A stretch of 64,000 bases of DNA from Acheta domesticus (taxonomy: Eukaryota; Arthropoda; Insecta; Orthoptera; Gryllidae). Position numbers and translations under genes: made by a program. Each line of letters opens with the position of its first letter. The stretch's first letter is position 1. This document shows positions 1,960-44,786 of this stretch, piece after piece. The notes beneath the pieces were generated by a model. That model worked only from the letters and a program-made list of their open reading frames with translations, searched no databases and was not told where the DNA came from. The DNA is taken from assembly GCA_031308135.1 (NCBI GenBank), contig JAHLJT010009419.1, forward strand, positions 68,624,550-68,688,549, in the 5' to 3' direction.

Positions 1960-2643
1960 GGAAGAAGAGAAAGTATTGTAATCGTGCGCCGGAAAGCGGA
2001 GAATTTTCGATGCAAAAACTCTCTTTTCTGGATCCCGATAACGAAAAAGTGGATATATCCAGTTGCTAAATCTAGAAAAAAATCCTCTAACACGTGGTGT
2101 AGCGAGAATCCAAGTTTTGTGGGTCCTTGTTCCCGAAAAATCAAATGACGCCAAAACGTCTGTCAATCTGTTCGTCTGTCCGTCTGCCTGTCCATCTATG
2201 AACAACGTAAGCGGCTAAACCATTGAGACGATTTTCTCCAAAATTGGTATTCCCCAATCGATCTGTCCGATGTCGCGGCCTCTTGAATTTGAAACCTAGA
2301 TTTTAATTTATGGGGGTACATTACATGAAATTCTGTGACATTGTCAATATTTTCAAAAAAATTGCTCAATTTTTTTTATTAAATAGTGTGTAGGACGTTT
2401 AAGAGAATGGTGCAGGTCTCATGTTCGTTGAAAACCATGATTTTTCGAAAGTTCAAAATTTCTTCATCGTCTTCCTGCAACTAAAATAGTAAAGAAAGAT
2501 TTTCCCTTTATGAAATCTGTTCCTTAAAGATATATAATTTTGAAATAAGGCCATGTACAATTTTTCTTAAATTTGAGTACTTTTCGCGTAATTTTGCCTG
2601 AAAATACAGCCGAGTAAGTACGTGCTGTTTTAGCACCACTGGT
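1960..2643 (+). mobile_element. Family H (Helitron-like) copy, + orientation
   Basis: It shares with other copies the block GAAAAAGTGGAT...CACGTGGTGTAG...TTTTGTGGGTCCTTG, followed by a GTCTGTC/GTCCGTC tract at about 2157-2195. It ends GTGCTGTTTTAGCACCACTGGT at about 2622-2643, with a 5-bp hairpin (GTGCT/AGCAC), terminal CTGGT and T as the next base. The 5' boundary is approximate. Confidence 0.7.
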
Positions 2644-3719
2644 TTCTTATTATACTCCTCGTCCTCGTCACCTGCCAATACGAAATCATTTTTTGTGTTC
2701 CAGTTGCGTTACATATTGCACAAATGGACTGACATATTGATTAGGAGAATTTCAGTTTCTTTCTTTCTTTCCTAATCTCGTTATCTGTCCTGTCATGTGC
2801 ACTTTCTGTCTATTTTTATCGTAAAGCATAATTATACCAACACTGTCTGACAAGTAGTCTTTGATTATTCCTTAGCGTGACAATGATAAAGTACTCGCGT
2901 TTCTCTACGTTTTCTGCTTTCATTTCTTTCTATTACATAACATGTTTTTACGACAAATTTGAATAAATAGGAGTGTCAGAAATCGATTACGTGTATTACG
3001 CATTAGAGACGTATAATTTAATAAATATCTAACAAAGCTTTCTTCGAGGTTTAATTACAAAATAGAAAGACCAGAGTAACACGGTAACCACAAGTGGCGA
3101 TTTCAACGGTCGAACTAAAAAATGACATCCCCGCACCATTGTAGATCCATGGCAAAGTACGTGTATATTATGCCTAATGCAAAATAGAATATAGCCATTC
3201 CAATTTAATACATTTTACAATTCAGTGGTTAACTACTATTTGATTATAATTAATACAATCAATAAGAACTCTATAAGAACTTATATAATGTGATTCATAA
3301 TATTTGTTTTCAATTGATTTCAGTGGATATTTATTAGATATCAAAAAACCCGTACCAAGTTTCATTAAAGTCCTTTCCCAGCTACCAAATCCTGCTAGAA
3401 ATCGGAGCTTGTTAATCTGTGCCCATCTTCGAATCCCGAGCGCAGGCGACGGGAGGGGGGGGTGCTTTCGCTTGTACCCCTTTTCTTTTCTACGGTTTGG
3501 GGATCACAGTGACTTTTGCCATTGAAAACCACTGAATGGATGACGATTAGGGTAATCATGAAGGAGAGTGATGATGTGATGCGAGATAAATGATTACGGT
3601 TTGGTGGTTCAGGTATCAATCCTTGATAGAATGATAATCCAACCATGACTCAAGCAAATGGTGGAGACGCCTATGCTGTACGTGAGTGAATAAGTAGTGC
3701 GGAATTCCGGACGCGCCAA

Positions 3720-3960
3720 CTACTCCTCATTAGTCCGTAATGTGTACTTATATCCCGGGAGACAGCGTTGTTCTTTCCCCGCTGAATATGAGATCCGGCG
3801 CCGACTTACACGTCGGCAGGAGTGTTCGTCCTCAAGGTATCTCCCTTTGTAGCACCGTCTCAGGCGGGTCAATCTCTTCTCTGTTGACTGGTGTCCCCAC
3901 AGTGTGTGGTAGTGTCGTCTATGCATTGTGTAAACGTGTGTGTGTGTAAGCGGAGAGAAG
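3720..3960 (-). repeat. (TG)n-linked dispersed repeat, Family S
   Basis: Read on the - strand it ends ACGGACTAATGAGG, like the copies near 17.1, 57.2 and 59.2 kb, and its other side carries a short (GT)n tract at 3937-3948. Similarity between copies is patchy. No internal promoter boxes were confirmed. Confidence 0.5.
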
Positions 3961-4369
3961 GGGACAAATGTGGGGAAGAGATGATTGCGCGCAGTCCTTA
4001 GTCTGTTTTTTTGGATACTGCTCCGGCATTCGCCTACTATTGATCGGTGAAACCACAGACAACTACCAATCAAAACAATTAAAATTCTCCTCCAGGCACT
4101 GCTTGAATTCGCCCAGCCGTCTAGCTAGTGTCGAAAATTCGCCACCGTCGTACCTCGAACCCTCGGTACTCCCAGTCAATAAAACCTCAAATGCAACAAA
4201 ATCGCCATTGAGCTATCGCAGCGGGTGGCCATGCCCTACCCTTACAGGGACACGAAACCGCAGCCTTCGACTCAGTGTCCTGGGGCGTTGCCCCATGCCC
4301 CTCCGCTGTCGAGACGGGCTTCGAGCTTCGGGAGTCTGTTAGCAATATCGCGAACGCTGCATTGATGTA

Positions 4370-4565: not shown

Positions 4566-5261
4566 GAGCACAACCTAGTGGATGAGGATGTCTCCCAATA
4601 AGAACAGTTTCGAGAATTGAAAGTTAAAGTTTTTCTATATAGCGTCAAGAATGTCGTTCATAGTTATCCACACAAATCTATACTTTTAGCCAATAATCGT
4701 CTCATATTATTTCAGTAGTATACCTTCTCTTTGTGGCTCTCACATGCAACCTATCTTTATCAGTCTCAAAAGAAAGAGAATTTCAAGATGTGACAAATTG
4801 CACTTTGACTTTTAAAATATGAAGGATTTGTTTAACAAAGTTGTACTAAGTAACAACACTGAAAATCAATGCATGGTTCTCGTATAACTCTGTTTTATTT
4901 TCTTTTGGAGTTTCGATGTGTTTTTGGGACGTTATTATTCAATATAAAACGAGATTATGTTTAAAACTAAACGTCAAACGTATTCTGGATTTAACATAAT
5001 ACAAACATTACCTATCGTTGCAGAGTTTATTATACCCAGCCGGACAGACGATCCCACTGTAGCGAGAAGCACACACTACGTTAGTTCTTGCCGAATGCGA
5101 TGTACGCTCTTTATTTCACTTGGAATTCCGCGAATGAAAGATCGTTCCGCTCTATTAAATTCCTATCAAACCGCCGTACGGTGCACCCACGTCGATTGAT
5201 CGCATATGCATCGAAATGAAATGGATTTTTTTACGCTGGCAGAAATCAACCAGGACAAGTA

Positions 5262-6146
5262 CAGTAATCCCATCAAGCATTCACGATAGTTAGATACCCA
5301 AAAAACATCGCGAATTTTAAATCCGCGAATGTTGAGTCTATCTATTAATGAAGGAAAGTGGTTTAGGATTCCTCGATGTCGAAACACTGATTAAAAATAA
5401 AGAAAAAAATATCCGACAAACAATGGCAATAGAACTGAGTAAGCGCTACGACAAACAGAATTCACAATTAACATCCCAAAATGAAGAAATAAAACAACGT
5501 TTGAAACTTGTTTCAAAGTTGACAGTAATTGAATATAAGATTTGGATTTTTTATTTTTTTGGTTTCATCACCCTCCTCGTTGTTCGAATATCCAATATGG
5601 AAGAGTTGCAGCTTCTACTCTCTCTCTATTTAGAAGTTATTTGCATGTTGGAATCACATTCGAATGCCCTTTTCACCAGAGCTTGTTGAAGTTTTAGAAC
5701 GTCATTAACAGTTTTGACATTGATGTTGCTACAGGACGCAGTTTCGCTTCCGTTACTTCATTTACCTTCTTGAATGAGGTCATTATAATGAGAGTTGTAC
5801 TGATCCTGAATGACTTTTCTGTTCATGTGGGTAAAACCCTTACCTCCAATTTGACGCAACTGAATTGAATTATTTTACAATTGTGTTATTCTATTAAATG
5901 TGAATTGATATTTCAACTTTTAAATTATTGCAGAAAGTGGTACTTTCAGAACCGACGTCTGCCACGTTCCGTTTCCTAGAGATACTGCTAAAAGAAATGA
6001 AATATGCTCCCTTCAAAGAAAATGTAATACGACCAAAGGCACACTCGCGAATGATGAAATCGCGAATGTTAAAACTTTTAGCATTTCTCTAATCGTGAAT
6101 GTTCGGAACTCGCGAATAGCGAATTCGCGGATGTCGAGGGATACTG
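5262..6146. mobile_element. pogo/Tigger-like DNA transposon, non-autonomous or decayed
   Basis: The left end is CAGTAATCCCATCAAGCATT. The right end, read on the - strand, is CAGTATCCCTCGACATCCGC, followed by further repeats of the CGCGAATT kind. Both ends are directly flanked by TA (5260-5261 and 6147-6148), the target duplication of Tc1/mariner/pogo elements, and this wording is typical of Tigger ends. Inside is a 113-codon open frame (5348-5689, +) that I do not recognise as a transposase. The terminal repeats are only partly alike. Confidence 0.62.
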
Positions 6147-8539: not shown

Positions 8540-9270
8540 TTTGTCGCCAAATTAGACAAAAAATACTCAAATTTTCAAAAAATTGAACTTGATCTATTTG
8601 AAGATCTGCTTTTGATGAACGCATTTCATTGAGAAAAATAATTATATCTTTACAATTAAAGTTGTAGGTAGACGCCGAATACTGTTTAATTTTTCTAAAC
8701 TTTCGAATGAGACTCGCACCATTTTCTTAAGGTTCCTCTACGCTATCTTAGGTCTAAATTTAATAAAAAAATGTGCCGTTTAAAAAAATAGTTTAAAGAA
8801 CATAAAAATTGCCTCTGCTTGACACAAAATTTCCCAAAAAATACTCATATTTTTGAAAAATTCAGCATGACATTTTTTGGGGTCTATTTTTGACGAACAC
8901 ATTTTATTTTAAAAACGATTATCTTCATAAATTATAATTGTAGAAACACGCCAAAAAATTAATTTTTTTTCAGATTTCGAAAAATCAACATTTTGAATAA
9001 ACATGAGATCTCGTCATTCTCTTAAACGTCCAATAACTATCCAATAACAAAGTTTAATCAAAAACGTTGGAGCCATTTTTTTTAATTTTGGAAATGTCCC
9101 TAGAGCTTTATGTAAAATAGCCCCCAAAATTAAAATATCTGTTTCAAATTCAAGTGCCCGCGACATCAGGGAAATAGATTGAAAAATTTTGCAGAAAATT
9201 GGCTGAACAGTTTTTCTGCCGAAAATTCGCCGTTTTTTAGTCCAGCATTACATAACTTAATCTCTGCCAC
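8540..9270 (-). mobile_element. Family H copy, - orientation, internally deleted
   Basis: The right side reads TCGCCGTTTTTTAGTCCAGCATTACATAACTT in pieces matching the reverse complement of other copies' 5' ends. The interior matches the copies at 2.3-2.5, 30.8 and 39.0 kb (ATTCTCTTAAACGTCC block). The (GTCY)n and CACGTGGTG segments are missing. Boundaries are approximate. Confidence 0.6.
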
Positions 9271-10070
9271 GTCAGCAGTAGTGTGAAAGTGAAAAGAGCT
9301 TTAGGTATCATTTTTAAAGGAATTTGTTCATCAAATATTGATCGTCAAATACGGTAATGTTGAATTTTTTCGAAAATATGACTTTTTTAAGTAATTTATC
9401 GTCAAACATGGTCGCCCCCTCCGAATTTACTGCGCTTCCTGAACGTAAAATTAATGGTGTTGCCAGACATTTGGATGCAATGTAAGTTAAAATTTGTAAA
9501 TTATTTAATATTTCTTTATGCGTTTCTTACATTGCAGCTTTTGTTATACGTTTCAGAATTCATCTTTTAGACATTATTTAAAACCTATTTTAAATTGTGT
9601 TCTTTAATTGAGTTAAATGTTAAAATGAATAGATGATTTTTCTTTGTTTAATAAGATATGAGATCGAAGAGTAATCAGGTAAACATCGAGTAATTTTGAT
9701 GAATATAACAATATTATATTTAACTATTAAAAATTTGTCCATCCATTTTCCTTTTCTTGCCAGCGGTATCAACAATGCTAATTGGCAAAACGTGTATCCC
9801 GTTCGAAATAGGTGTAATTTTTTCTTGCTGCAGCCCATTGTTGTAACTCCGTGCTGATAACAGAAGGTTATAATGACAGCTTCCTTTGGTTCGTGTTAAT
9901 ACAAACCAATCATTTTATTTAGGGCTAAAATTCGCATCGTGCATCGTTGGTACATGTATGTAAAATATCAATACACTAAATTTAATGGACGTAAGCTATT
10001 TAAGGGTTTGAATTTTTAAAAATTTGTGTATTTTTCACGATTTATTTGTTAAAGAATTTTTCAAATGGTG

Positions 10071-10083
10071 GTTGAAGAGTAAG
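10071..10083. repeat. target-site duplication, left copy (13 bp)
   Basis: GTTGAAGAGTAAG, repeated exactly at 10355-10367, flanking the SINE. Confidence 0.9.
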
Positions 10084-10354: not shown

Positions 10355-10367
10355 GTTGAAGAGTAAG
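10355..10367. repeat. target-site duplication, right copy (13 bp)
   Basis: GTTGAAGAGTAAG, identical to 10071-10083. Confidence 0.9.
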
Positions 10368-10404
10368 ACAGAAATTGTCATATTATAATGTTACATACCC
10401 ATTA

Positions 10405-10446
10405 GCAATATCGCGAGGAAGTGCGTGCTGTTGTAGCACCACTAGT
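10405..10446 (+). mobile_element. Family H solitary 3' end
   Basis: The terminus GTGCTGTTGTAGCACCACTAGT carries a perfect 5-bp stem (10425-10429 with 10435-10439) and terminal CTAGT, followed by T. Nothing clearly related precedes it by more than a few tens of bases. Confidence 0.6.
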
Positions 10447-25830: not shown

Positions 25831-26757
25831 CCTCGTTAGGGAAACGAGCTCACAAAGATTCTATCTTGCCCCTTTTGACTTTCATGGTTCTCTTTTTTAA
25901 TGTAAATTTTTATGATTGCTGTTACATTTCCTGATATTATTTCATTGGGTAGACCAAACATACTATAGGCACAATATTTCGAAATCCTCCTGGAAAGGAA
26001 ACAAATTGCCATGTAAAGGTTTCTTCAGTCCATCTTTTGGGCAGGTCTTTTAAAATCTAACCGCACAAAAAAGAGAGAAATAAAATGTTACAATCTACGT
26101 CAATAAGCAAACCCAGAAAACAAACAAAAAATGTAGCAATTACTACACTTGGGCGCTAAAGTATTTTCATTGACACACTCTTATTTTAACACCAGCATTA
26201 CTCCGGTACTAGGCCTGATTCGCCTACCGTTTTTTTTTATTGGTTTCAATTTTTTTAAATTTCAAAGCCATCAGTATTGTTTATGATGTTTACGATCAAA
26301 ATATTAGGTAGTTTGGCAATGTTAGAACTCGAGTTATTACAGCGTTTTTGATTCTGCATAAAAAATCGGTTTTACTGGAAACGTAAAAATTCAGAACAAA
26401 TCCGTATTACTAATTTCCAATGAGCACAGAAATAAAAAAAATATTCAGCCTCCGGCCATATGAGAGGTGTTTTACAATTTTGTATCAATTTATTTGATAC
26501 AAAATACGACTGTAACGATCACCTTTGTGTAGAGTGCATCATATATTCAATTCTCCGTTACTCAATTCTCCGTGCTTTCATTTTTAACCCTCTTGATCGT
26601 CTGATGAGAAGTCCTTCTTTCACAGTCACGTCATGTTTTACACTGGTGGAGGTCACGTCTGGTGTGCTTCTGGGAGAAGGTGCTGGCGGTCTGTTCAGGG
26701 AATTTCTATAATTTAGTGCTTTCTATACCGGTATATAAAAGACGTAATATGACTGCA

Positions 26758-26905
26758 ACTAGTGGTGCTACTAATAATGCAACTAGTGGTGCTACAGAAT
26801 GGCACAGACTTTCCCGTATTAATTTTCTATTACCTTTGGTCTCGGTTAGCTAATCGAACTTGCTACATTTTCTTACCCGTTGCCATCTATTGCCGCCCAC
26901 ACTAC
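26758..26905 (-). mobile_element. Family H 3' module with duplicated terminus
   Basis: On the - strand this is the roughly 120-bp 3' module (GGCGG...GATGGCA...GTAGCACCACTAGT). The terminus occurs twice, ending at 26782 and again at 26758, each followed by T on the element strand (A on the + strand). Confidence 0.75.
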
Positions 26906-28540
26906 ATTTTTCCCGTATACGTACGAATACACGGAGTAATATACGTAGTATAGGGAAAGTTATGTAATGCTGAGCGAAAAAATGGCCAATTTTCGCCAGA
27001 AAAAAAAATCGTTGCGGGCCGCTGATAACGAAAAAGTGGATAAAACCAGTTGCTAAATTAAGAAAAAATCCCCTAACACGTGGTGTAGCCAGAACCCCTC
27101 TTTTGTGGGTTCTTGATACCGAAAAACCAATTGAAAGGAAAAACGTCCGTCTGTCTGTCCGTCCGTCTCTGAACACTGCTAGCGCCTAAACCATACGTAC
27201 GATTTCTTCCAAAATGGATATTCCCCGATCGATCTGGTTCTAGACGAAGCTTCGAGATTTTGAAAACAATTCTGTAAAATTTGGGGGTACTTACATGAAG
27301 CCCTCCGGATATTTTCAAAATTGTCTCAAAAACGACTCCAAATTTTTCTTTACATTTCCTGTAAGAATAGACTAAAACACATTTATTAAGGTGGCATAGG
27401 TCCGATTTTCACGGATAACTCTGAATTTTCAAAAATTGAAAAGTTTAAAATTTGTTCGGCGTCTTTCTGGAACTACAAAACTGGAACTAAGATAGAGATT
27501 TTTCTTTTAAATAGAATTTGTTGTCTAAAGTGAGTTCTTTCATTAAGGTCATATATATTTTTTTGAATAGTTTAGTAGTTTTCGCGCAATATTGCGTAAA
27601 ATATGTGCAATTTTAAATAATTACAAAAACAAGATTTTCTCAAACACGGCTCCAAATTTTTCTTTAAACTTTTGATAGGTATAGTGCCTAATGTACTTTA
27701 TGATATGACAAAACGCCATATTGCTGTATTCTTTTGTTTTTTCAAAAATTGCAAAAATGTATTTTTTTACTTGTCTCTCACGTCGTTAATATTTACATTT
27801 CCCTTGATTTGTTGACATTAATATATATTAAGAAGTAAATGAGCTTTAAATAATGTCAAGTAAAGTTTCTCGAAAACTCAACCTTTTTCTGTGAAAAGTA
27901 GCTCAAAATTCCGCATTTTTAGAAATGCTCAAACGCCATTTTCTCGTATATGGCTGCAAATTTTTTCTTGAAACTTTTGTAGCTGATAGTGCTAATTACA
28001 CTCTTTAATATGACGTAAAGTTCATGGTATTTGGTTAATATGACGTAAAGTTCATGGTAAAGTGGTGGTATTTATTTTTTTCAAAAATTAAATAAATGTA
28101 ATTTGTTTGAAAGATCTCTCACGCCTTTAACATGCATATTCCCAGCAATTTGTAAAGCTTATTATATTTGTGAGTGTGAGTGCTTCAAATAACTTCAATA
28201 AAGTATTTTGGAAACTCAAAAATTTTCTGTGAAAATGAGATTCAAATTTCGAATTTTTAGTAGTGCTAAAACGCAATTTTCTTTAAAACGACACGTAATT
28301 TTTAAAAGAAAATTTCGATCTAGGACTAGATTTTTGTGTTCTTTAATATTCTGAAATTAATATTTCTGTTCTACCAATAGCAAACTGCAAAATTAAGAAA
28401 ATAAAAAAAAATATACTTTTGGCGGTGATAGATGGCAGCTGGCAAGAAAGAGAATGTGGCAATTCCAAATAGCTAGCGAAGACCCAAAGAGATAGAAAAC
28501 TAATACGGGAAAGTCTTTGCCATTTTGTAGCACCACTAGT
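26906..28540 (+). mobile_element. Family H near full-length copy
   Basis: The 5' side reads TTTTTCCCGTATACGTACG, then GTATAGGGAAAGTTATGTAA. It contains GAAAAAGTGGATAAAACCAG, CACGTGGTGTAGCCAGAA and a GTCCGTCTGTCTGTCCGTCC tract (about 27145-27166). It ends with the 120-bp 3' module (28421-28540) and CTAGT followed by T. There is no long open frame, so it is non-autonomous. Confidence 0.78.
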
Positions 28541-28550
28541 TTCATATTTT

Positions 28551-30017
28551 ATTATTTTTTTCGGTTTCCTAATACTAGAACGAAAATATTATTTTAAGAA
28601 TACTAAAGAACAGTCCTAAAGTGAACATTTTCTTTGAAAAAATTGGAGCGGTAATTAAGAAAATGTTTAGGCGTGACTGTAAATGCCAAATTTGAAGCTC
28701 TTTTTCACAGAACATTTTTGAGTTCTCGAAAAGCTTCATTTAAAGTCCTTTAAAGCATTTTAACTTACAAATACAACAATGTTTACAAATTGCTAGAAAT
28801 ATGCATATTAACAGTACGGGAGAACGTTCAAAAAAATGTAATTTGTGTAATGTTGTAAAAACGACACAAAAAAAACTAAATAAACTTAACATCACATTAA
28901 AGAGTGCAAATAGCACTATCTGTTCTAGAAGTTTGAAGAAAACATTTGGAACCATTTTTGAGAAAATGGGGTTTCAGCGTTTCAGAAAATTCGGAATTTT
29001 GAGCTGGTTTGCACACAAAATGGTTGAGTTTTCGAGAAACTTTATATGACTTTACTTAAATCACATACACTCATTAATATAATAATGTAAACAAATCGCC
29101 GTTAATGTAAATAGAACCGACGTGAGAGACATGTCAAAAATTATGCAATTTTGTACTTTTTCAAAAACAAAAGAATAGAGCAATATGGCGTTGATGTCTT
29201 CTCTTAGAGTACACTTAGCACTACCCCTACGAAAAATTTAAAAAAACAAATTTGAAGCCGTTTTTGACAAAATCTTGTTTTTGTATTTTTTTTAAAAATT
29301 GCAAATATTGCAGGCAATATTGCGCGAAAACTACTAAAATTTTCAAAGAAATGTACACGACCTTAATGATAGAAATTACTTTGGAGAACGAATTTTATTT
29401 GGAGGAAAAATCTCTATCTTCAATTTTGTACTTGTAGGAAGAAGACGAAAAAAATGTCAAACTTTCGCAAGTCTCAAAAATTCAGAGTTAACAGTGAAAA
29501 TCGGACGTACGCCATCTTCGTAAGTTTTACTCCATCCTTACAATAAATTTAAAGAAAAAAAGTGGAACGGTTTTTGAGAAAATTTTGAAAATGTCGAGTG
29601 GGCTTCATGTAGAGTATCCCGATATTTTGAAGAATGTTTTTTAAAATCTGAAAGCTTTGACCAGAGCCAGATGGACAGGGGTTTCTTCAATTTGGAAAAT
29701 ATCCTTGGAGAGGTTTAGGCGCTAGTGGTGTTCATAGACGGACGGACAGACAGAGATAGACAGACGGACGTTTGCCTTTGAATTGGTTTTTTCGGTATCA
29801 AGGACTTATGAATCGGGGATTCTGGCTACACCACGTGTTACGGGATTTTTTTCATAATTTAGAAACTGGTTTTATCCACTTTTTAGTTGTCAGGGCCCGG
29901 CAATGAATTGTTTTCTGCCGAAAATTCGTCGCATTTTCGCACAACATTACATAACTTTCCCTATACCATGTATATTACTCCCGTATATACGTATCTATAC
30001 GGGAAAATAAAAAGTGA
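28551..30017 (-). mobile_element. Family H copy lacking its 3' module, tail to tail with the previous one
   Basis: It matches the reverse complement of 26906-28410 along its whole length. The 5' end is at about 30017 (TTTTTATTTTCCCGTATAG on the - strand) and the GTCY tract at about 29736-29772. It stops next to the 3' end of the neighbour, so the two form an inverted repeat with arms of about 1.45 kb and an asymmetric loop of about 130 bp. Confidence 0.75.
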
Positions 30018-30120
30018 ACAAAGCAAACTAACTTTAATAAAAATTGTATATTAATTGATGAATCAATTTATTATTTTAACAAACGTATCTAATTCAATAG
30101 AATGAAAATTTAAGTTCCGT

Positions 30121-30379: not shown

Positions 30380-30960
30380 TTACTTTCTCGCTACAACTTA
30401 CACGATAGAGAGACATTTATGTAAAGCGGGGTGAAAAACGGCGAATTTTTGGCAGACAATCTCTTATTACAGAGCCCTGAAAAGTGGATAAAACCAGATG
30501 CTAAATTTTCAAAAATTCTCCAACGCGTGGTGCAGCCAGAATTCATGTTTTGTGGGTCCTTGATACCGAAAAATCGATCGACGGCAAAACGTCTTTCAGT
30601 CAGTCAGTCCGTCCGTCCGTCCGTCCGTCCATCTGTAAACAACGCTAGTGGTAAAAACGTTCTGCCGATTTTGCCCAAAATTGATATTCCCCAATTGACC
30701 TGCCTAATAATGCGGCTGCTTGAATTTCAATACGATATTTTAGTTTTCGGGGGTACTTTATGTAAAGCCCCAGGGGCATTTTCAAAATTTTGAAAAAAAA
30801 ATACTCCAACGTCTTTGATGAAACTTTGCCAATGGATATTGTGAAGGACATTTAAGAGAATAGAGCAGGTCTCATTTTCGTTGAAAACCCTGATTTTCTG
30901 AAAATTGAAAAAATTCAAAATATTTTCGGCTTCTTCTTACAACTACAATTATAAATAAAA
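30380..30960 (+). mobile_element. Family H copy, 3'-truncated
   Basis: The 5' side resembles the group (TTACTTTCTCG...GAAAAACGGCGAA). A perfect (GTCC)n run lies at about 30607-30630. The interior belongs to the same subgroup as 2.0-2.6 kb (AAGAGAATAGAGCAGGTCTC block). No 3' module was found. Confidence 0.65.
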
Positions 30961-30984
30961 ACAGTTTTTTTTACTGTTTTGCAC

Positions 30985-31345
30985 TTACTAACATAAGAAG
31001 AGAAAGTATTGTAATCGTGATAAGGAAAAAGTGGATAAATTTAGTTGCTAAATATAGAAAAAAATTCCTCTTACACGTGGAGTAGGCCAGAATCCATATT
31101 GTGTGCGCCCTTCACAACGATTCAAAATCGATTGACGGCAAAATGTGTGTCCGTCTGTGCACAACGCTACCGCATGAAACGTTCAGCCGATTTTCTCCGA
31201 AATTGATATTCCCCAATCGTTCTAGCTGATGTCACGGCCCCTGGGATTTGAAACCGATATTTTAATTTTGAGGGGGTACGTAACATAAATCCCCTCGGAC
31301 ATTTCCCAAAGTTTCAAATAAATGGCTCCAAATTTTTCCAACGTG
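30985..31345 (+). mobile_element. Family H copy, fragment
   Basis: AGAGAAAGTATTGTAATCGT is nearly the same as the start at 1965-1985, followed by GTGGATAAATTTAGTTGC, a degenerate CACGTGG block and a short GTGTGTCCGTCTGTG tract. It ends within the interior. Confidence 0.6.
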
Positions 31346-31827
31346 TATTCCAATCGCATATTAAGTAAGATTGCTTTGAAATATAAAATAACTGAATAAA
31401 GTATGAGCATTTTGATTATTTTGAGCAGTTGATAACTAATGAAAGACAAATTTAATAGAATTATGTAAGTTGATTCCTTTGTATCTCTTTTATTACACCA
31501 ATACTCTTCATCAAAATACTTGTTTCAAGGTTACTCGTGTTTAAAGCAATTGATGCATTTTTTATTGTTTTTGTATCTGAATGTTCATTACACGTAAATA
31601 ACAAACACGTACTGCATTTTGTTCTACTCTTTCCGTATCTGTTTCTGATAATTATTTAGGAATAAAAATTGGTGACCCAGAATGCCAAGCGGGGTTCAAA
31701 AGTACCCCAGTGCTTGCTTTTAAGAAGAAAACATAAAACACCTTAAACAATACATAATTATCAACGGAAGTATTTCGGACAATGTAACCAAATTCAATAT
31801 CACAAATAAGAAAAACGTACAAAAGTA

Positions 31828-33370
31828 ACTTGTGGTGCTACAGAATGGCACAGACTCTCTCGTATTAGTTTTCTATTTCCTTTGGTCTCGGCTAGCTATT
31901 CGGACTTGACACATACTCTTCCCAGCCGCCATCTATCGCCGCCCAATGTACATTTTTTTGACATTTTCTTAATTTTTCGGTTTCCTAGTACTAGAACAAA
32001 ATATTATTTAAAGAATATTGAGAAGCAATAAACCCTTATCCTAAATGGCAATTTTCGTTGAAAAAATTGGAGCCGTTTTTAAGAAAATGGCGTTTAATAG
32101 GCACTAAAAAATGCGGAATTGGGATAAATGCGAAATCGGAAGCTTTTTCACAGAAGGTTTTTGAGTTTTCGAAAAATTTCATTTGAAGTTATTTAAAGCA
32201 CTTTAATTTACAAATACAATCGTGTTTACAAATTCTTGGAAATATGCATATTAACGGTAGAAGATAATTTAAATAATATTACATTTGTGTAATTTTTGAA
32301 AAAACGAAAAAATACCTCAAACTGAACTTTACGTCACATTGAAGAGTGCAAATAGCACTATCTGTTCGAAAAGTTTGAAGAAAAAATTTGGTGCCATTTT
32401 TGAGAAAATAGCGTTTGAACGTTTTCGAAAATTCGGAATTTTCAGTTAGTTTTCGCAGAAAAAGGTTGTTTTAGAAAAACTTTATAGGACATTATTTAAA
32501 GAAAACAAACTCATAAATATGATAATGTGAACAAATTGCCGCTAATGTAAATATTACCGACTTCAGAGAAGTCAAAAAATTACATTTTTGTATTTTTTCA
32601 AAAACTAAAGAATAGTGCAATGTGGCGTTTACGTCAGTCTCATAGAGTACATTTAGCACTATTCCTACGAACAGATTAAAGAAAAAAATTGGAGCCGTTT
32701 TTGAGAAAATCTTGTTTTTGGTCTTTTTAAAATTGCAAATATTTTGTGCAATATTACCAGAAAACTACTAAAATTTTCAATAAAACTGTGCATGGCCATA
32801 ATGAAAGAACTCACTTTGGAGAACAAATTTTATTTAAAGGAAAAATCTCTATCTTTAATTCTATAGTTGTATGAAGAGCCCGAAATATTCAAACTTTTGA
32901 AATTATCGAAAATTCAGAGTTAACCGTGAAAATCGGACCTACGCCATGTGAATAGTATTTTACTCTATTATTTCAAGAAATTGAGAAAATTTTGAAAATG
33001 TCCGGGAGACTTCATGATAAGTACCTCCAAGTTTTCGAGAATGTTTTTCAAAATCGCGGATTTCAGATCGGCCGAGGAATATTCATTTTGGAAGAAATCG
33101 TACTTATGCTTTCGACGCTACGGTTGTTCACAGACAGACAGACAGGCGAACGGATGTTTTGATTTCAATCGGTTTTTTCTGTATCAAGGACCCACAAAAC
33201 AGGGAGTCTGGGTACACCACGTGTTAGGGGATATTTTTTCCACATTTAGCAACTGGATTTATCCACGTTTTCGTACCAGGGCCCTGTAATAAGAGTTTCC
33301 TGCTGAAATTTCGCCGTTTTTCGCGCAGCATTACATAACTACTTCTCTACTGCGTAAGCGGTTGCGAGGA
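31828..33370 (-). mobile_element. Family H near full-length copy
   Basis: The 3' terminus is at 31828 (GTAGCACCACAAGT on the - strand, followed by T), then the 3' module up to about 31950, the interior, the GACAGACAGACAGG tract at about 33132-33146 and a 5' side TAATGCTGCGCGAAAAACGG near 33310-33335. Total about 1.5 kb. Confidence 0.72.
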
Positions 33371-34005
33371 AGTATAATGGGATAGACACTTAGAATATAG
33401 TGTTGCGTTCAGTGATTTATATCAATTTCGCCTTGGAGCTATTGATTCTCGTCTTGGTGTTCTGTTTCGTTCCAACATACAGCATACACCATTAGCTACA
33501 TCACCACGTACCATCTTCTATCATGTATGCGTCAAAAAACTTCATGAGGAAATTGTAAAATCCCTTCTACGATAGGGATTCCCTCCTAACATTAATATAT
33601 TTACATTGACTTGGGCAAATACATCCAGAAGTTCTTCTTTCCCGCTTTGCTGTCTTTCGGTTGAGTAAGAATAATAAGCTGTTTCAGTTAGACGATACCC
33701 ATTCATTATCTACATTTACTACCAAATAGGCTCTTCGATTTTTTCATTAACTTTCTTACCTAGCTCAATCACCAAATCTTGCTGTTTTGAGCACACATTT
33801 TACTTCGTTTGACTTCTTCTTGCCTCCACCAGCATTAACAATTATTGTCCAGCTAACAATGATTGTGCACTTTGTTTGAAATTCCATTCCGCTTATCGAT
33901 ATTCATCTCCTTTATGATCATTTCCAAACAATACTTGCCTAAGACGGCACATCTAGTTCTCAGAAGATCTAAAAAGACCTTTGAACCAGTTTTTGCGGAA
34001 AAATT

Positions 34006-34577: not shown

Positions 34578-34914
34578 GTAAGTAACTGATTTGTATGTTG
34601 GAATAAACAATTATCTACGTATATTGTTAATTTTAAGAAATCATAACGAAATCCAGATAACTGTTATTACAACAAAAGTGTTATAATATTTCATGGCCTC
34701 CTATAAAGTAGTATCAACGTCAGTTTCGTAATATGCTGTGCTGTTAGGAGAGCCGAACGGGTTGTACTAAATCTCCAAAATGGCAGCGTTGATGGCTGTC
34801 TGTCAGTACTGTCATCATCTGAATCAAGGGTTTCAACCTGAACGGCGATATTCAAAGGGAGAGATATTCAAAATGAATTGTCCTGCAGGATTGATACTTA
34901 ATTTATTTTTTCTT

Positions 34915-37330
34915 CACACCCCCTTCCCATTCCTCATGTTCCATCCACTCCTTCACGATCCCTCCCTCCCGATTCCCTCATTCCCTCTCCCTATCTCATG
35001 CACATCGTCCCCATCCCTCATGCCCCTCTCCCTTCCTTACACCCCGTATCTTCCCTCACGCCTTCTCCCTATCTCATGACCCCTTCTCAATCCCTTATGT
35101 CCCTCCCTTTTCCTTTCGCTCCCTTATATTTCCTCACGACCATTTCTTTTCTCTCGCACCCTCCCAATCCATCACGACCCTTCCCCTCTCACGGTCCCTT
35201 CTTTTCCCTCACGCCCACTCCTTATCTCTCGCAACCACTCTCCATCCCTCATGTCCTTCCTCCTCCGTCATATCTATTTATATTCCATCACTCTTTCGCG
35301 CAATCTCTTATGTCCCTCCCCTTCCTCACGCTCCCTCAGGCACAGTCCCTAACACTCGCATACCCTTTCCTCATGTCCCTCCCCTCCTCCATGCTCCTTC
35401 ATATTCCCCCTCGCCGACTCCCTATTTCTTGCACCCTCTCCACATCCCTCAAAACTCTCGCACACACGTTTCTCATGTCCCTCCCCTTCCCTCATCCTCC
35501 CATATATTACCTAACTCCTTATCCCTATTTATCGCACGCTCTCCCAATCCCTTAGGTCCACCCCTCCGTTATATTCTCTCACGCCCACTCCCTATCTCTC
35601 GCAAACTCCCAATAACGTTTATCTCTCCTCATTACTCATCTACATTATATTCCCTCACTCCCACTCCCTGTTTCTCACAAACTGTCCCCATCATTTATGC
35701 CTTCCATACCCTTCACGCCGCCTTGCATTCCCTCACGTCTTTTCTCTATCTCTCGAACCCCCTCCCAAACCCTTATGTCTCTACCCCTCCTCGTTCTCCC
35801 TTACATTCTCACACGCACACTTCTAATATCTCGCGCCCCATCCCTATCCCCCATGCACCTCCCCCGCCCTCATGCCCCCTTATATTTCAGCACGCCTTCT
35901 CCCCTATTTCCCGCACGCTCAGTCCAATCTATTGTCCTCCTTCTTTCCCCACGCTCCCTTATATTCCCCCACACCCACTCTCTCTCTTTCCCACCCTCTC
36001 TCTAGTCGTCATGATCCTCCCCTCCCTCACGCACCCTTATATTCCTTCACGTCCACTCCCTGCCTCCAAACCCTCTCCCCACCCGTCATGAACACCCCCT
36101 TCTACCTTATATTATCTCACGCCGACTCACTGTCGCTCACACCCTCTCTCCATCCCTCATTTCCCTATCCCTCCCTCACTCTCCCTTACATTCCCTCATG
36201 CCTACTCCCTAATCTCCCCATTCTTCATGTCCCTATGCCGTCCCTCACGCCCCCTTTTATTCCTTCACGCCCAATCTGCATCACCCTTCCTCGCTTCTCC
36301 TCATTCACCCTGATCTACCTTCCCCTTGCCACTTTGGTTCACGCTTTCGCATTAATGTCCTTGCCTTTCTCACGCCCATTTATGTTCCCTTATGTCCACT
36401 CCCTATCTCTAGCCTTCCACCCCACCCTCCCCAACGACCATGTCTCGCCTCGTCCCTCACGCCCATTCGATATCTTTGGTCTCCCTTCCCATCTCTCATG
36501 ACCCTCCTTCTTCTTCCCACCCCCTTATATTCCTCTATGTCCACTCCTCGTATCTCACGCCCACGCCTCACCCCTATCACTCTCTACCTTCCCTCTACCC
36601 CACGCTCCCCATCTACCATGCCTCGCCTCGTCCCTCGCGCCCATTCGCTATCTTTCACCTTCTCTCCCATCTCTCATGACCTTCCTTCTTCCTCTCACCT
36701 CCTTATATTCTTTTACAACCACTCCTCATCTCTCATGCCCACTCATCTCATCTCTCACGCCCGCTCCTCAACTCTCGCGCCCACTCCTTATCTATCGCGC
36801 CCACTCCTCATCTCGCACGCCCATTCCTCATCTCCCACGCCCACTCTTCATCTCTAGTACTCCCTACTCTCCCCATCCTTCATGTTCCTCCCCGTCCCTC
36901 ACGTTCTCTTATATTCCCTCACACCCGATTCCTATCTCCCGCACCCCCTTCTCATCTATCATCTCCCTCCTTAACCGTCACGCTCCTTTCCATTCTCTCA
37001 CTCCATCTCCCTATCTCTCGCAGCGCCCTCCCCGTTCCGTTATGTCCCTTTCCTTCCCTCCCGTCCCGTTCGATTCCCACACGGCCCCTCCTTATTTCTC
37101 ACACCCTCTCCTCGTCCTTTCCGCCACATCCTCGACCCTCCTGTATCCAAGCCGATTCTCAAACGCTCTTTTCGGGTTTCAGATCTCATTTCATGCCGCC
37201 CCTTTTCCCTTAGTCCTATCTGTTTGTGCTTCCAATCAGTATCACCCTTTCTCCCTTCTCCCATTCTAACCTCATCTCTTTCCAACGAAGACCCTTTCTA
37301 CCTCCCCTTTCCACCTCCGTTCACGCCCAC
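34915..37330 (+). repeat. polypyrimidine minisatellite, about 2.4 kb, unit 70-80 bp
   Basis: The + strand is almost pure C/T with a diverged repeating unit of the type CTTATATTCCCTCACGCCCA CTCCCTATCTCTCGCACCC. Successive CACGCCCACTCCCTATCTC-like anchors at about 35580, 35657, 35727, 35813, 35891, 35970, 36048, 36119, 36197 and 36266 give spacings of 69-86 bp. Open frames of 185-220 codons (Pro/Ser/Leu/His/Tyr-rich) follow from the absence of purines and are not taken as genes. Confidence 0.85.
36729..36852 (+). repeat. 20-bp tandem subrepeat inside the minisatellite
   Basis: About six head-to-tail units of the TCTCGCGCCCACTCCTTATC kind, each 20 bp with a few changes. Confidence 0.85.
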
Positions 37331-37642: not shown

Positions 37643-38250
37643 TTCTTTTACTTTCTCGTATAGGCCTACTGCGTACGTCTAAACGAAGTAATATACATAG
37701 TATACAGAAAGTTATGTAATTCTTTGGGAAAAACGACAATTGTGCGACAGAAAACTCGTATTGTGCCACACTGATACAGAAAAAGGTGACAGCTCCTGTC
37801 CTAAAATGTAGTGAATTACTCCTTCTAACACATTATGTAGTCAGATTTCAAAAATTGTGGGTCACTGATACCGAAAAAGTGTTGTTAACGCCACTAACGC
37901 CTAAACTATACATACGATTTTTCCAAACTGAATAAACTCTCGTCGATCTGACCTCACTCAAAACTGCGATTTTGAAAAGCATTCCATAATTTTTGGAAAT
38001 ATTTTTCACTGGGACATTTTCAATTTTTTTTCCAAAATTGCTCCAATATTCTCTTTAAATTTTTTTGTACGAATAGGGCAAAATATACACATAAGATGTC
38101 AATTTCTCGTTTTTTATTGTCAACTCTAAATTTTCAGAGTTTGAAGAAGTTTGAAATTTATTCACCTTTTTCCTTTAACTACAAAATTGAAGATAGAGAT
38201 TTTTGTTTCAAGTAATACTTTATCTCTAGAGTCAGTTTTTCATTGTTCTA
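37643..38250 (+). mobile_element. Family H copy, diverged, 3'-truncated
   Basis: It begins TCTTTTACTTTCTCGTATAG, then AGTATACAGAAAGTTATGTA. The ACACATTATGTAGTCAGA block is a mutated CACGTGGTGTAGCCAGA. The GTCY tract is lost. The interior matches 27.3-27.5 kb. Confidence 0.6.
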
Positions 38251-38599
38251 ATTAAAGTGAAAAGAAAAACTAGCAGTGCCACGACAGTACATACGTTTTC
38301 GTGTTTTGGGAACGGCTACGTAATATTGAAGTATTGTATTTTCTGCTCGACTCACTCCTCTGCTATTAATTGAAAAAGTTCAATTCAAACAAAGCGCCAA
38401 TGAGACATATCTGCATTCGTTTCTTTAGTCAGAAGCAGTAATCATTTCTTACTTTGACAAATGAAACAAACAAGAATACATTTGAGTGATATAGTATTCC
38501 CAGAAATTATACAGGAGTCATTACACGTCAAATCGCACACGCACAAAACACCACTATTTTCTAGCGACTTGAAACTTTTTGATTTTCTCGTTACCGCTT

Positions 38600-39275
38600 C
38601 CTCAGTAGAGAGAAAGCTTTGTAATGGCGCGCGAAAAAACGGTGAATTTTCGGAAGAAAAATTATTATTATAGGGCCCTTGAAACGAAAAAGTGGATAAA
38701 TCCAGATGCTAAATTTAGAAAATAAAAACTTCTAACACGTGATGTAGCCAGAATCCATTTTTGTGGGTTCTTCCTTCTTAAAAATCGATTGATGGTAAAA
38801 CGTTAGTCTGTCCGTCCGTCTGTCGGTCGGCTCTGTGAACCACGCTGGCGCATCAACCACATTATTTTACATTACCGCATAAACATTATTTTACATCTGT
38901 TTTTCATGAACACATTTCATTAAGAAAAAATAACATCTTCATTATGTTATTTAAAGGAAAACACCAACAAATTTTGAATTTTTTCTATTTTGGAAAAATC
39001 AATATTTTTAACCAACATGAGACTTGCGCCATTCTCTTAAACGTCCTTTATAATATTCTACAACAAAGTTTAATAAAAAAATGATGGAGCATTTTTTTCA
39101 AAAATCTGAAAATGTCCCAGGGGCTTCAAGTAAAGTACTCTCAAAATTAAAATATCGGTTTCAAATTCATCAGCCACATCCATTGCAGAATATAAGTTTT
39201 CAAGAAAATCGACACAGACCGACAGGCAAGCGGACGGGACAGACGTATGGGGCAGACCAGCAACGCCCGAAGTGA
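38600..39275. mobile_element. Family H chimera of + and - arms
   Basis: 38600-38850 is a + strand 5' part (GAAAAAGTGGATAAATCCAG, GTCTGTCCGTCCGTCTGTC). 38930-39250 is a - strand interior ending in GACAGGCAAGCGGACGGGAC. The two pieces face each other and form a short palindromic composite. Confidence 0.55.
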
Positions 39276-40937: not shown

Positions 40938-41185
40938 TTGCCTGCCCTATTGCCGTCAATCGTTTTTCGTAAGGAAGGACCCACAAAACATGGATTCTGG
41001 CTATACCACGTGTCAGAGGATTTTTTTAAAATTTAGAAACTATCCAATTTTTCTATATTTTAGGGCCCAGACAATGAATTTTTTTCTGCTCAAAATCCGT
41101 TATCGCTTTATCGCGTAGCATTACGTAACTTTCCCTATACTATGCATATTACTCGGTATATACGTATGTATACGGGAAAGTAAAA
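40938..41185 (-). mobile_element. Family H 5'-end fragment
   Basis: The - strand reads TCTCTTTTACTTTCCCGTATA (41187 leftward), GTATAGGGAAAGTTACGTAA and, farther in, CACGTGGTATAGCCAGAATC. It stops before the GTCY tract. Confidence 0.65.
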
Positions 41186-41578
41186 GAGATTATTGCAACA
41201 CACTTTGTTATAGCGAATAACTCGGAAGTAATAATTCCTAGGCTTTTCAAATCAGGTTTGCGTGTCTAATACAACTTTTTTAGGACAAGTAAATTCTGAC
41301 AGATGATGTGTTTTGGGGGACGGGTAAATGACAAATGGAGAAATAATAAGGGACAGTTCGGATGCAGGTGAAGGATGGATGGACGACAGGTGGGGAAATG
41401 AAGGGGAACAGATTGGACTTCAAAATACGACATTTATGATCGTCCTTTTTTACAGTTTTGCATATTTAGTTCTTTTGGATGTCCCCTCTCCATAGCATGG
41501 GTGGACAGAAAAGAGAAGCCGAAATCAATATAAAATTAAATTGAAGGAAAATACCGAAATTATCTTTCACAATAAATA

Positions 41579-43259
41579 ACTAGTGGTGCTACAAAATGGC
41601 ACAGAATTTCCCGTATTAGTTTTCTATTTCCTTGGGTCTTCGCTAGCTATTTGGAATTGCCACATACTCTTTCTTGCCAGCTGCCATCTATCACCGCCAA
41701 AAGTACATTTTTTTGTTATTTTCTAAATTTTTCGGTTTCCTATTGGTAGAACCGAAGTATTAATTTTAGAATATTAAAAAAACACAAAAACCTAGACCTA
41801 AATGGTAATTTTCTTTCAAATAATTATGTGCCAGTTTTAAAGAAAATTGCGTTTTAGCGCTACTAAAATGCGAAATTTGAAGCTCATTTTCACAGAAAAT
41901 TTTTGAGTTCCCAAAATACTTTATTTGATGTACATACACTCACAAATATAAGAATCTTTACAAATTGCCGGTAATGTGCATATTAAATATGTGAGAGATC
42001 TTTCAAAAAATTACATGTGTATAGTTAAAAAAATTCAAAATAATCTTTACGTCATATTAAAGATTGTAATTAGCACTATCCGTTACAAAAGCCTCAAGAA
42101 AAAAATTCCAGCCCTATATGAAAAAATTGCGGTTAAGCGTTTGTGAAAACGCGGAACTACTTTTCACAGAAAACAGTTGTGTTTTTGAGAAACTTTACTT
42201 GACATTATTTAAAGCACTATGAACTCGTAAATATAATAATGTGAAAAAATGGCCGCTAATATAAATGTTAACGACGTGAGAGGCAAGTCAAAAAAATTAC
42301 ATTTTTGCAATTTTTGAAAAAACAAAGAAATAGAGCTATGGCGTTTTTGTCATATCAGGAAATACATTAGGCACTATACCTAGCAAAAGTTTAAAGAAAA
42401 AATTTGGACCCGATTTTCAGAACCTTTTGTTTTGGTAATGTTTTAAAATTGCACATATTGCTCGCAATATTGTGCGAAAACTACTAAAATTTTCACAAAA
42501 ATGTACAATATCTTAAAGAAAAATCTCACCATGAAGAACAAATTTCATTTGAAGGAAAAATATCTATCTGCAATTTTAGTTAGATTCGAATAAAATTCAA
42601 ACTTTTGCAATTTTCAAAAATATCAGAATAGACGGTGAAAATCGGACCTATGCCACCTTAATAAGTGCATTTTACTCTGTTCTTACAAGAAATTTAAAGA
42701 AAAACTTTGGAGCCATTTTTGAGAAAATGTTGAAAATATCGGGGTTCTCTTCATGTAAAGTACCCCCAAATTTTATAGAATCTTTTTCAAAATGTCAAAT
42801 CTTTGACTCGAACCTGATCGACTGGGGAATTTCCATTTTGGAAAAAATCATACTTATGGTTTAGGCGCTAGCAGTGTTCACAGACGGATAGACAGACAGA
42901 CAGACGGACGGACAGACGGACGTTTTCCTTTCAATTGGTTTTTCGGTATCAAGGATCCACAAAAGAGAGGTGACCACGTGTTACGGGATTTTTCTCTAAT
43001 TTAGCAATTTGGGCGGCGATAGATGGCAGCTGGCGAGAGTATGTGGCAATTCCGAATAGCTAGCGCAGACCCAAGGAAATAGAAAACGAATACGGGAAAG
43101 TCTGTGCTATTCTATAGCATTATTAGTTCGTTATCACGGCCAGGCAACGAACTTTTTTCTGCCGAAAATTGGTCATTTTTTCGCGCAGCACTACATAACT
43201 TACCCTTTACTAAGTATATCACTCTGTGTATACGTACGTGGACGAGAAAGTAAAAAGGA
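41579..43259 (-). mobile_element. Family H full-length copy, about 1.68 kb, with nested 3' module
   Basis: The 3' terminus GTAGCACCACTAGT ends at 41579 on the - strand and is followed by T. The 3' module extends to about 41700. The GTCY tract appears as GACAGACAGACGGACGGACA (about 42888-42918). The 5' side is TTCCTTTTTACTTTCTCG at about 43259. A second 3' module in opposite orientation interrupts it at 43012-43127. Confidence 0.75.
43012..43127 (+). mobile_element. solitary Family H 3' module nested in another copy
   Basis: 116 bp from GGCGGCGATAGATGGCAGCT to CATTATTAGT, followed by T. It sits inside the 5' part of the host copy, where other copies read CTGGTTTTATCCACTTTTT. Confidence 0.7.
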
Positions 43260-44601
43260 ACTATTTTATTTTCTGTGAGTGTTTATCTCAACGCTCAACA
43301 ATATTGGAATTGATTCTCTCGCACAGTTCCGAGTCTATAATGCTGTAAACCACGGTTAGAGGAATGCGCGTTTGCAGTAGGGTGCTACATAAAATCAATT
43401 TTCAGTTTTCATACAATCGTTATTTACAAAGTGCAGAACTTTAGCACGTGTACAGACTGTATATACTTCAACATATACAATAACAAATACTTAGGGTAAG
43501 TGAAAACACAACTTTTTCTGTAGTGTGAAACATCTATAGATTATGAAAGTGCAAGCTTCCGCTGCGCTCAGTAACTATTTATCTGTCCCGGTGACGCCGC
43601 GTCCTAGGCACTGTTGCCAACCTTTCAGCCGCCGTTCTGTGACCTTCCTCGTAGGTGCCTATTTGGCTGTCAGGACGTGGCGTCTACTGGACAGCCAAGT
43701 ACTTGACCACAAAATCTTAGTTTTTAAACTATTGGCTAGCTATTAAAAAAATATGAAAAAAATTCACAACTGTTCTGGAATGAAGTGTTAAGATTCTTTT
43801 TCGTGCCAGTGTCGGTGTACTAAGACACAGTAAAACTTCCTGTAAATCCTGGTCCAACCTGTTCCCTTTCATTTCCCTTCATGTCCCCCAATTATTCTTT
43901 ACATGTGACTGAATTATTATTTCATAAACTCCCAAAAACTATCGACTTTCCTTAGCGTTTGATAAACGTGCACAAAGATAAGAAAGTTTTAGGAAAAGAT
44001 AATTTCTTATAATTAATAAATACTTTTCAAAGTCCAAATATTACTGGGTGCTACAACAGTGTACACAAATGTATAATAAACCCTCAAATAAATTCACAGA
44101 ATTGTTGCAGTCATTTTTAAATTATATTTAAAGTCCAGGTGATTTAAAGGCTGAAAAATGGTTTTTATTTTTTTAACTGCAGCCTAGTAGTCGCAAAAAT
44201 CTGAAATAAATTCACAACAATTTGTGTTTCAAGGAGAACTTATATGTTTTCAGCCCGTTCCAGGGTTCTAAGACAATAAAATATTTTTAAATTTTGTTTT
44301 CAACTAAATTTTTGTTTGAATTTGGGCCTGATAAAATATCGAAAAGTGTTTTTTCTAATCGTATAAATTGTTTTCTTATTTATCATATTTTTAGTAAGTA
44401 GGATAGTGTTAAGTTCCCAAAAAAGACACGTTATTGGCTGTAGAGGGCGAGGGTGGTGGGTCGGGAGCTAGAAAACTTTACAAAAATTTTATTTTTATGT
44501 TGTCTAAATGCTCATATGTCATTTGGTTGAGGGGAACATTTTACCATCTTATCCGCGAGTACCCTTTCCATATAGGACGTGGTTTGTGTCTTCTTTGGTA
44601 C

Positions 44602-44786
44602 TCTTAAAGTAATATTTCGGTTCTACGATTAGGAAACAGAAAACCCGAGAAAAATTTTAAAACATCTTTGGGCAGCGTTAGATGGCAGCTGGTAAGAGAA
44701 AGTGGCTAGTCGGAATACCTAGCCCAAACCAAAGAAAATAGAAAATTCATATGAGAAAGTCGGTGCCATTCTGTAGCACCACTAAT
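44602..44786 (+). mobile_element. Family H solitary 3' end, about 185 bp
   Basis: Matches 28340-28540. It contains GATGGCAGCTGG and ends GTAGCACCACTAAT, followed by T. Confidence 0.65.

What the first reader, a model, noticed from the sequence alone, without database searches (positions are those of the whole stretch)
1960..44786. A Helitron-like family with CTAGT|T ends and an internal GTCY microsatellite dominates the introns
At least twelve copies or fragments share a 5' side (TTTTACTTTCYCGTATA...TAGGGAAAGTTATGTAATG), a CACGTGGTGTAGCCAGAA block, a (GTCC/GTCT)n tract about 200-250 bp from the 5' end and a 3' module of about 120 bp. The nine 3' termini I located (2643, 10446, 26758, 26782, 28540, 31828, 41579, 43127, 44786) read CTAGT, CTGGT, CTAAT, TTAGT or CAAGT and all are followed by T. 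A short hairpin (GTGCT/AGCAC, or GTGC/GCAC) precedes the end and no target duplication is visible. CTRRT ends inserted before T with a 3' hairpin are Helitron hallmarks, and GTCY tracts are known from the DINE-1/mini-me group in flies. The class assignment is inference.
Basis: partly seen in the sequence, partly recalled or inferred. Interest (0 to 1): 0.75.

Follow-up and report, generated by a model that had tools for sequence, protein, structure and literature searches.

The report
T-run-inserting Helentron-type nonautonomous repeat (HINE)
The repeats are a large family of gene-less rolling-circle transposons of the known Helentron/DINE-1 type, which slip into runs of T without duplicating the target; they are a new family of a known kind rather than a new kind of element.

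Summary
In detail: nine of nine 3' ends are as described and followed by T, with about 14 copies or fragments. The class is refined: not a canonical Helitron but a Helentron-associated non-autonomous element (HINE; Helitron2/DINE-1 type). It has a 12-bp asymmetric inverted repeat (ACTTTCCCGTAT / ATACGGGAAAGT), a strong 5' hairpin, GTCY tract, central repeats, and a short 3' hairpin ending CTAG. Insertion is in T-runs, not A|T. The genome holds 9,051 exact 3' ends of one type and 2,167 of another (reversed controls 0). A paralogous empty site shows no duplication: 5 T empty, 5+2 T filled. In 5 of 20 fetched full-length copies the element runs about 0.7 kb past the old end to a new terminator. 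The window's solo "3' modules" are nested or deleted copies. The intact, abundant Rep genes are canonical Helitrons; the one whose ends I could read has other ends. Helentron-type Rep (RGSPH) occurs at 21 mostly broken loci; whether it shares the family's ends was not tested.

The parts
26783..26911 (-). 3' end (consensus 1605-1473) of a host copy of the family, split by a nested insertion
   Evidence: consensus BLAST; empty-site comparison
28546..30019 (-). rest of the same host copy (consensus 1467-3, with its 5' end)
26909..28541 (+). full-length copy nested in the T-run of the host copy; its first bases are worn; ends CACCACTAG|TT
   Evidence: (86.5% to consensus)
26757..26780 (-). 24-bp repeat of the host copy's 3' terminus
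   Evidence: and sequence
31827..33378 (-). near-full-length copy, 3' end at 31827
41578..43007 (-). near-full-length copy, 3' part (consensus 1605-143)
43127..43261 (-). 5' part of the same copy (consensus 125-1), after the nested remnant
43008..43128 (+). 3' remnant of a copy nested in 41578-43261; its 5' side is lost together with some host bases
40950..41187 (-). 5' fragment (consensus 1-220) with well kept 5' inverted repeat and hairpin
44565..44787 (+). 3' fragment (consensus 1378-1605) ending CTAAT|T
1935..2643 (+). diverged subfamily copy; hairpin GTGCTGTTTTAGCAC, ends CTGGT|T
10386..10446 (+). 3' terminus with hairpin GTGCTGTTGTAGCAC, after a SINE-like repeat (about 10080-10355)
   Evidence: the start of this piece is my estimate
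8545..9297 (-). diverged fragments of the 5' half
30380..30969 (+). diverged 5' half with (GTCC)8 tract at 30599-30630
30990..31340 (+). diverged fragment of the 5' half
37644..38244 (+). diverged 5' fragment
38584..38859 (+). diverged 5' fragment with GTCY tract
38902..39169 (-). diverged internal fragment
5257..5497 (.). copy of an unrelated repeat without insertion; diverged paralogous empty site for genome copy L075
44131..44498 (.). copy of an unrelated repeat without insertion; diverged paralogous empty site for genome copy L084 (junction blurred)

Best explanation
A high-copy family of non-autonomous Helentron-type rolling-circle transposons (HINE, DINE-1/Helitron2-like). The recent consensus is about 1.6 kb: TT-ACTTTCCCGTAT (5' half of an asymmetric inverted repeat that folds back with GTATAGGGAAAGT into a hairpin), conserved block, GTCY tract, A/T-rich central repeats, then ATACGGGAAAGT, a short GTGC...GCAC hairpin and CACCACTAG. 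Shown: the boundaries, insertion inside T-runs with no target duplication at the sites tested, nesting into its own copies, and copies that run past the old terminator to a new 3' end. Inferred: a Helentron Rep/helicase acting in trans nicks at the 5' end, peels off one strand by rolling-circle replication, stops at the 3' inverted repeat plus hairpin, and inserts the strand into T-rich DNA.
For: 12-bp perfect inverted repeat between the 5' end and a site about 25 bp from the 3' end. 5' hairpin z -3.8 to -8.8 in 20 of 20 fetched full-length copies against single-base shuffles; against dinucleotide shuffles z -5.0 for copy L070 and -2.5 and -2.2 for two window 5' ends. T-run before the 5' end of at least 4 T in 19 of 20 (2 T in the other), TT after the 3' end in 20 of 20 (these copies were found by their body, not their ends). 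Paralogous empty site: the joined flanks of L087 match 40 of 40 scored places across the junction; three were read and show AATA-TTTTT-GTGAC empty against TTTTT | element | TT filled. L069 gives the same +2 T against the family consensus; L083 and L085 gain 6 and 4 T and nothing else. GTCY tract and central repeats. No open frame over 98 aa in the consensus. Helentron-type Rep is present in the genome. Published definitions: PMC4067079 (sections 6, 7 and passages), PMC3627910 and PMC2374699 (passages).
Against: No autonomous element with these ends was found; the ends of the Helentron-type Rep locus could not be read. The main type's 3' hairpin stem is only 4 bp, and folding the last 45 bases favours another fold. 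The filled sites hold 2 to 6 more T than the empty ones, so the exact cut cannot be placed. In L072, L080 and L070 only one flank matches the presumed host copy, so those sites are rearranged or untestable; L084's junction is blurred by divergence. The window's diverged copies 31827-33378 and 41578-43261 no longer show a pairing inverted repeat.
Confidence: 0.92

Rival explanations
1. Non-autonomous derivative of the canonical (Helitron1, Helraiser-like) elements that are abundant and partly intact in this genome.
For: 150 of 150 scored Helitron_like_N matches (of 674 candidates) are above cut-off, with frames up to 1,477 aa; L089 matches Helraiser over its length. Both element types end CTAG followed by T.
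Against: L089, the one copy whose ends I could recognise, has 5' TCTATACTAATATATAAA after A and 3' CCCGGGCAACGCCGGGTACTTCAGCTAG|T by reading. No significant match to the family's ends in 33 Helitron loci (best E 0.069), but 30 of these hold only 1.5 kb or less beside the Rep domain and may not reach their ends. The family lacks 5' TC and inserts in T-runs.
Confidence: 0.05
2. A terminal-inverted-repeat (MITE) family, as the [reverse 3' module]-body-[3' module] arrangement at 26781-28541 suggests at first sight.
For: Inverted 3' modules flank 26909-28541 and the copy in L051/L052.
Against: The left module is the severed 3' end of a nested host copy, whose body resumes after the insert. The other fetched full-length copies begin with the T-run and 5' hairpin. 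No target duplication.
Confidence: 0.02
3. The five copies with the extended 3' end arose by recombination with an element bearing the second end type, not by terminator bypass.
For: The second 3' end type (ATACGGGAAAGTAAGTGCTGTTGTAGCAC) has 2,167 exact copies, so donors may exist; how many of these are the extended subfamily itself is not known.
Against: 5 of 5 share the same remnant of the old terminator and the same captured 0.7 kb, with different genomic flanks, so one founding event was then copied; this does not tell bypass from recombination.
Confidence: 0.35

Closest known systems
HINE / DINE-1-like elements (non-autonomous Helentrons; PMC4067079 sections 6, 7 and passages, PMC2374699 passages)
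   Same: subterminal inverted repeats, partial inverted repeat at the 5' side forming a hairpin, GTCY microsatellite, variable central repeats, 3' stem-loop, insertion between T and T without target duplication, no coding capacity
   Different: other subTIR sequence (ACTTTCCCGTAT against ATACCCGTTACTC in D. melanogaster), about 1.6 kb long, over 11,000 exact 3' ends of two types in a 2.3-Gb genome, and a terminator-switched subfamily
Helitron2 group (PMC3627910, passages read)
   Same: 5' inverted repeat 0-2 bp from the end, 3' one 20-30 bp from the end upstream of the hairpin, two hairpins, insertion after T-runs
   Different: no RepHel or Fanzor gene, and no variable-length TSD at the sites tested. 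One-ended 5' truncation, known from the Chlamydomonas members, is possible here too: 8 of 30 loci taken by their 3' end have 600 or more bases upstream without family match; I did not tell truncation from later interruption
Helitron2_Cv of Calliphora vicina (PMC3630058 passages) and (GTCY)n elements of Lepidoptera (PMC9659126 passages citing Coates 2011)
   Same: DINE-1-like plan or GTCY tract

Membership tests
HINE / DINE-1-like (non-autonomous Helentron) | 11-15 bp subterminal inverted repeats, 5' one a few nt from the end, 3' one upstream of the hairpin | tested here: met
   12 of 12 bp in the consensus, 14 of 14 in the terminator-switched subfamily, 3' one about 25 bp from the end; 8 of 10 in window 1935-2643; not detectable in the decayed copies 31827-33378 and 41578-43261
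HINE / DINE-1-like (non-autonomous Helentron) | 5' palindrome involving the 5' subTIR | tested here: met
   20 of 20 full-length copies fold, z -3.8 to -8.8, single-base shuffles; dinucleotide shuffles -5.0, -2.5, -2.2 for the three 5' ends sent
HINE / DINE-1-like (non-autonomous Helentron) | 3' stem-loop near the end | tested here: inconclusive
   5-bp stem in the second type, z -3.1 and -1.6 in two window ends; only a 4-bp stem in the main type, and not the preferred fold
HINE / DINE-1-like (non-autonomous Helentron) | T|T insertion, no target duplication | tested here: met
   empty site read at three places; at least two T on each side in 20 of 20
HINE / DINE-1-like (non-autonomous Helentron) | GTCY microsatellite and central repeats | tested here: met
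HINE / DINE-1-like (non-autonomous Helentron) | shares ends with a Helentron encoding Rep/Hel/endonuclease | not tested
Canonical Helitron (Helitron1) | 5' TC end | tested here: not met
   5' end is a T-run then ACTTTCCC
Canonical Helitron (Helitron1) | A|T insertion | tested here: not met
   T-run insertion
Canonical Helitron (Helitron1) | CTRR end (with 3' hairpin) | tested here: met
   CTAG in most copies; not discriminating
Helentron Rep (locus L103, C2131) | S in (V/I)ExQxRG-S-PHxH | tested here: met
   VEFQMRGSPHEH; 45 of 59 relatives have S and 0 L (14 without a readable motif), against 117 L and 0 S of the 120 listed Helitron relatives (3 without; 120 best of 2,132); separate clade 100/100 in a tree of 29 rows that I chose
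Helentron Rep (locus L103, C2131) | C-terminal AP-like endonuclease | not tested
   downstream DNA not fetched

The most novel reading that the evidence does not exclude
A HINE lineage with more than 11,000 exact 3' ends, its best copies 2-4% from consensus, in a genome where the Helentron-type Rep that I could reach is down to 21 mostly broken loci while canonical Helitron genes are abundant and some are intact: recent movement would then have depended on one or few surviving Helentrons or on borrowed canonical Helitron machinery, and terminator switching gave the family interchangeable 3' ends.
Probability: 0.15. Interest if true: 0.5.

Novelty: new member of a known kind. Interest (0 to 1): 0.3.

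Why it matters
It places an abundant repeat of this genome in the Helentron class, with near base-exact ends and an empty site, and it gives a natural example of a rolling-circle element that left its old terminator behind and multiplied with a new one. The contrast between thousands of gene-less copies, some young, and a few mostly broken Helentron Reps makes the question of who moves them testable.

Tried and rejected
Independent 120-bp '3' module' element: rejected, because the window's solo modules are the severed end of a nested host copy and a deletion remnant, and the 30 loci taken (the first 30 of 9,051 in contig order) all have family sequence upstream of the module. TIR/MITE reading of 26781-28541: rejected. 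Canonical Helitrons as source of the ends: not supported. RPA genes as a marker for Helentrons (PF08646): the search did not complete. Relatives outside this genome: none in viral contigs by an exact 19-base pattern or in phage records; both are poor places to look for an animal repeat. Six window ORFs had no Pfam match. Species not identified. Inverted-repeat covariation between subfamilies was inconclusive. The joined-flank query held 8 sites; only the L087 join was found whole, because the 40 scored places of 4,139 candidates were all filled by it, so the other seven are untested.
Full report
Check of the observation. A consensus search places about 14 copies or pieces, 9,743 bases in all, between 1,966 and 44,784. 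The 35-bp 3' end has 4,366 + 4,685 exact matches in the 2.33-Gb genome, 0 for the pattern read backwards; a second 38-bp end type has 1,085 + 1,082, again 0 for the control.

Anatomy. A query from locus L051 gave 40 scored copies of 8,397 first-look candidates; apart from the query itself they are 92-97% alike, and 35 of 40 begin at query bases 1-7. I fetched 20 of the 40, chosen for complete 5' ends; L072, L083 and L085 were fetched with wider flanks because family sequence showed there. In 20 of 20 a T-run stands before ACTTTCCCGTAT or a one-base variant; 15 of 20 end at the expected place and are followed by TT, 13 of them as CACCACTAG exactly. The 15 lie 2.1-4.3% from their 1,605-base consensus, whose longest stop-free frame is 98 codons. 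The 5' 12 bases are the exact reverse complement of a stretch about 25 bases from the 3' end. The 5' 56 bases fold at z -3.8 to -8.8 in 20 of 20 copies against single-base shuffles; against dinucleotide shuffles z is -5.0 for L070 and -2.5 and -2.2 for two older window 5' ends. The 3' hairpin of the main type is short (4 bp) and is not the preferred fold of the last 45 bases; the second type has a 5-bp stem, z -3.1 at 10446 and -1.6 at 2643.

Target. Left T-runs are 2 to 7 long (at least 4 in 19 of 20), right ones 2 to 6 (20 of 20), while TT makes up 0.11 of the window's dinucleotides. The best empty site came from a query of eight joined flank pairs: all 40 scored places, of 4,139 candidates, span the L087 join at 96-97%. 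Three were read; each has ...GCTAATA-TTTTT-GTGACTATC..., where L087 has five T before and two T after the element. Nothing but two T is gained, which fits an element that begins TTACTTTCCC and ends CACTAG, put between T and T. L069, set against the family consensus as its host, shows the same gain of two T; L083 and L085, also in family copies, gain 6 and 4 T but no other base. L075 and L084 sit in unrelated repeats whose diverged uninterrupted copies lie in this window at 5257-5497 and 44131-44498; L075 shows no duplication (four bases between the flanks in either), L084's junction is blurred. L072, L080 and L070 match a family host on one side only and do not count.

Nesting explains the puzzles of the window. 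26783-26911 and 28546-30006 are one copy on the minus strand, cut at consensus 1467/1473 by the plus-strand copy 26909-28541. 41580-43007 and 43127-43251 are one minus-strand copy holding a 3' remnant at 43008-43119. L051/L069 repeat the first arrangement elsewhere in the genome. The apparent inverted termini are therefore not the element's own.

5' truncation. Of the 30 loci taken by their exact 3' end (the first 30 in contig order), 8 (L041, L042, L046, L060, L062, L063, L066, L068) have 600 or more bases upstream without family match (five more with such gaps, L044, L051, L053, L054 and L056, have family 5' sequence farther up or a known nesting). They are 5'-truncated or interrupted. One-ended movement is known in Helitron2 (PMC3627910, passages read), so it may occur here; I did not test it.

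Terminator switch. In 5 of the 20 fetched copies (L074, L076, L080, L082, L084) the old hairpin is broken after GTGCCATTCTGT or a one-base variant, and 682-764 bases on, after shared non-family DNA, come a new ATACGGGAAAGT, a GTGCTGTTGTAGCAC hairpin (imperfect in L074) and CTAG|TT; the flanks beyond differ. This is a product expected when rolling-circle copying misses its stop and a later stop is used, though recombination with a second-type element is not excluded. The window's 10446 end has the same hairpin.

Who moves it. Helitron_like_N matches are plentiful (150 scored of 674 candidates). The 30 best form three families, all with RGLPH. One intact 1,445-aa protein matches Helraiser at 843 bits, and its element, read in one copy with canonical features recalled from general knowledge, has ends unlike this family's. 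The other Helitron loci held here mostly stop 1.5 kb from the Rep domain, so that no family end was found in them says little. PMC4067079 (section 7, read) gives S in place of L as the mark of Helentrons. A DUF6570 search found 10 matches from 14 candidates; at one of them, C2131, a frame reads VEFQMRGSPHEH. Its relatives carry S in 45 of 59 and never L (14 without a readable motif), while the 120 listed relatives of the canonical protein carry L in 117 and never S. A tree of 29 rows, 24 proteins that I picked from 179 plus five own loci (one more picked row dropped out for want of a readable motif), splits the two with full support. A protein search with this Rep found 42 matches from 81 candidates, all scored, which I group into 21 loci; only C2131, the query itself, covers the whole query without a stop. 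At C2131 the frame changes once between the DUF6570 part and the Rep part. Other Helentron lineages, too distant for this query, may exist.

Verdict. By the structural features that could be tested, the 3' hairpin of the main type being the weak one, the family is a HINE, the DINE-1-like non-autonomous Helentron, and it fails the 5' end and target features of canonical Helitrons. Rolling-circle movement by a Helentron protein is inferred from that membership. The sequence family looks new to me, but no repeat library or other animal genome could be searched here, so novelty at the family level is itself untested; the literature searches were by keyword only.

Noticed in passing
window 10080-10355: SINE-like repeat with tRNA-like promoter boxes by eye; 39 other places in the genome match mainly bases 10200-10355 at 79-85%. 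A Helentron-type 3' terminus follows it after about 90 bp.
   Followed up: partly
window 50690-50800: Exon matching Drosophila frequenin 2 / NCS-1 (E 9e-11).
   Followed up: partly
window 34901-37116: Long C/T-rich minisatellite-like tract with CCCTCACGCC-type units.
   Followed up: no
window 952-1109: Two 79-bp tandem copies 98.7% alike.
   Followed up: no
L089 (G000:C4356:27700-34400): Intact canonical Helitron gene of 1,445 aa, 843 bits to Helraiser, with 5' TC and 3' CTAG ends; 19 of the 30 best Rep loci belong to its family.
   Followed up: partly
L104 (G000:C2131:30200-31199): N-terminal part of the Helentron-type gene is an open frame largely made of a repeated, charged motif of 42 residues.
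   Followed up: no
L062: Two family 3' ends arranged as an inverted palindrome.
   Followed up: no
contigs C83 and C1565:20.38-20.40 Mb: Flanks of L069/L051-L052 and the 3' flank of L075/L050 are identical over the 105-156 bp aligned, so C83 looks like an alternative haplotype or duplicate, with a different spacing between the two elements.
   Followed up: no
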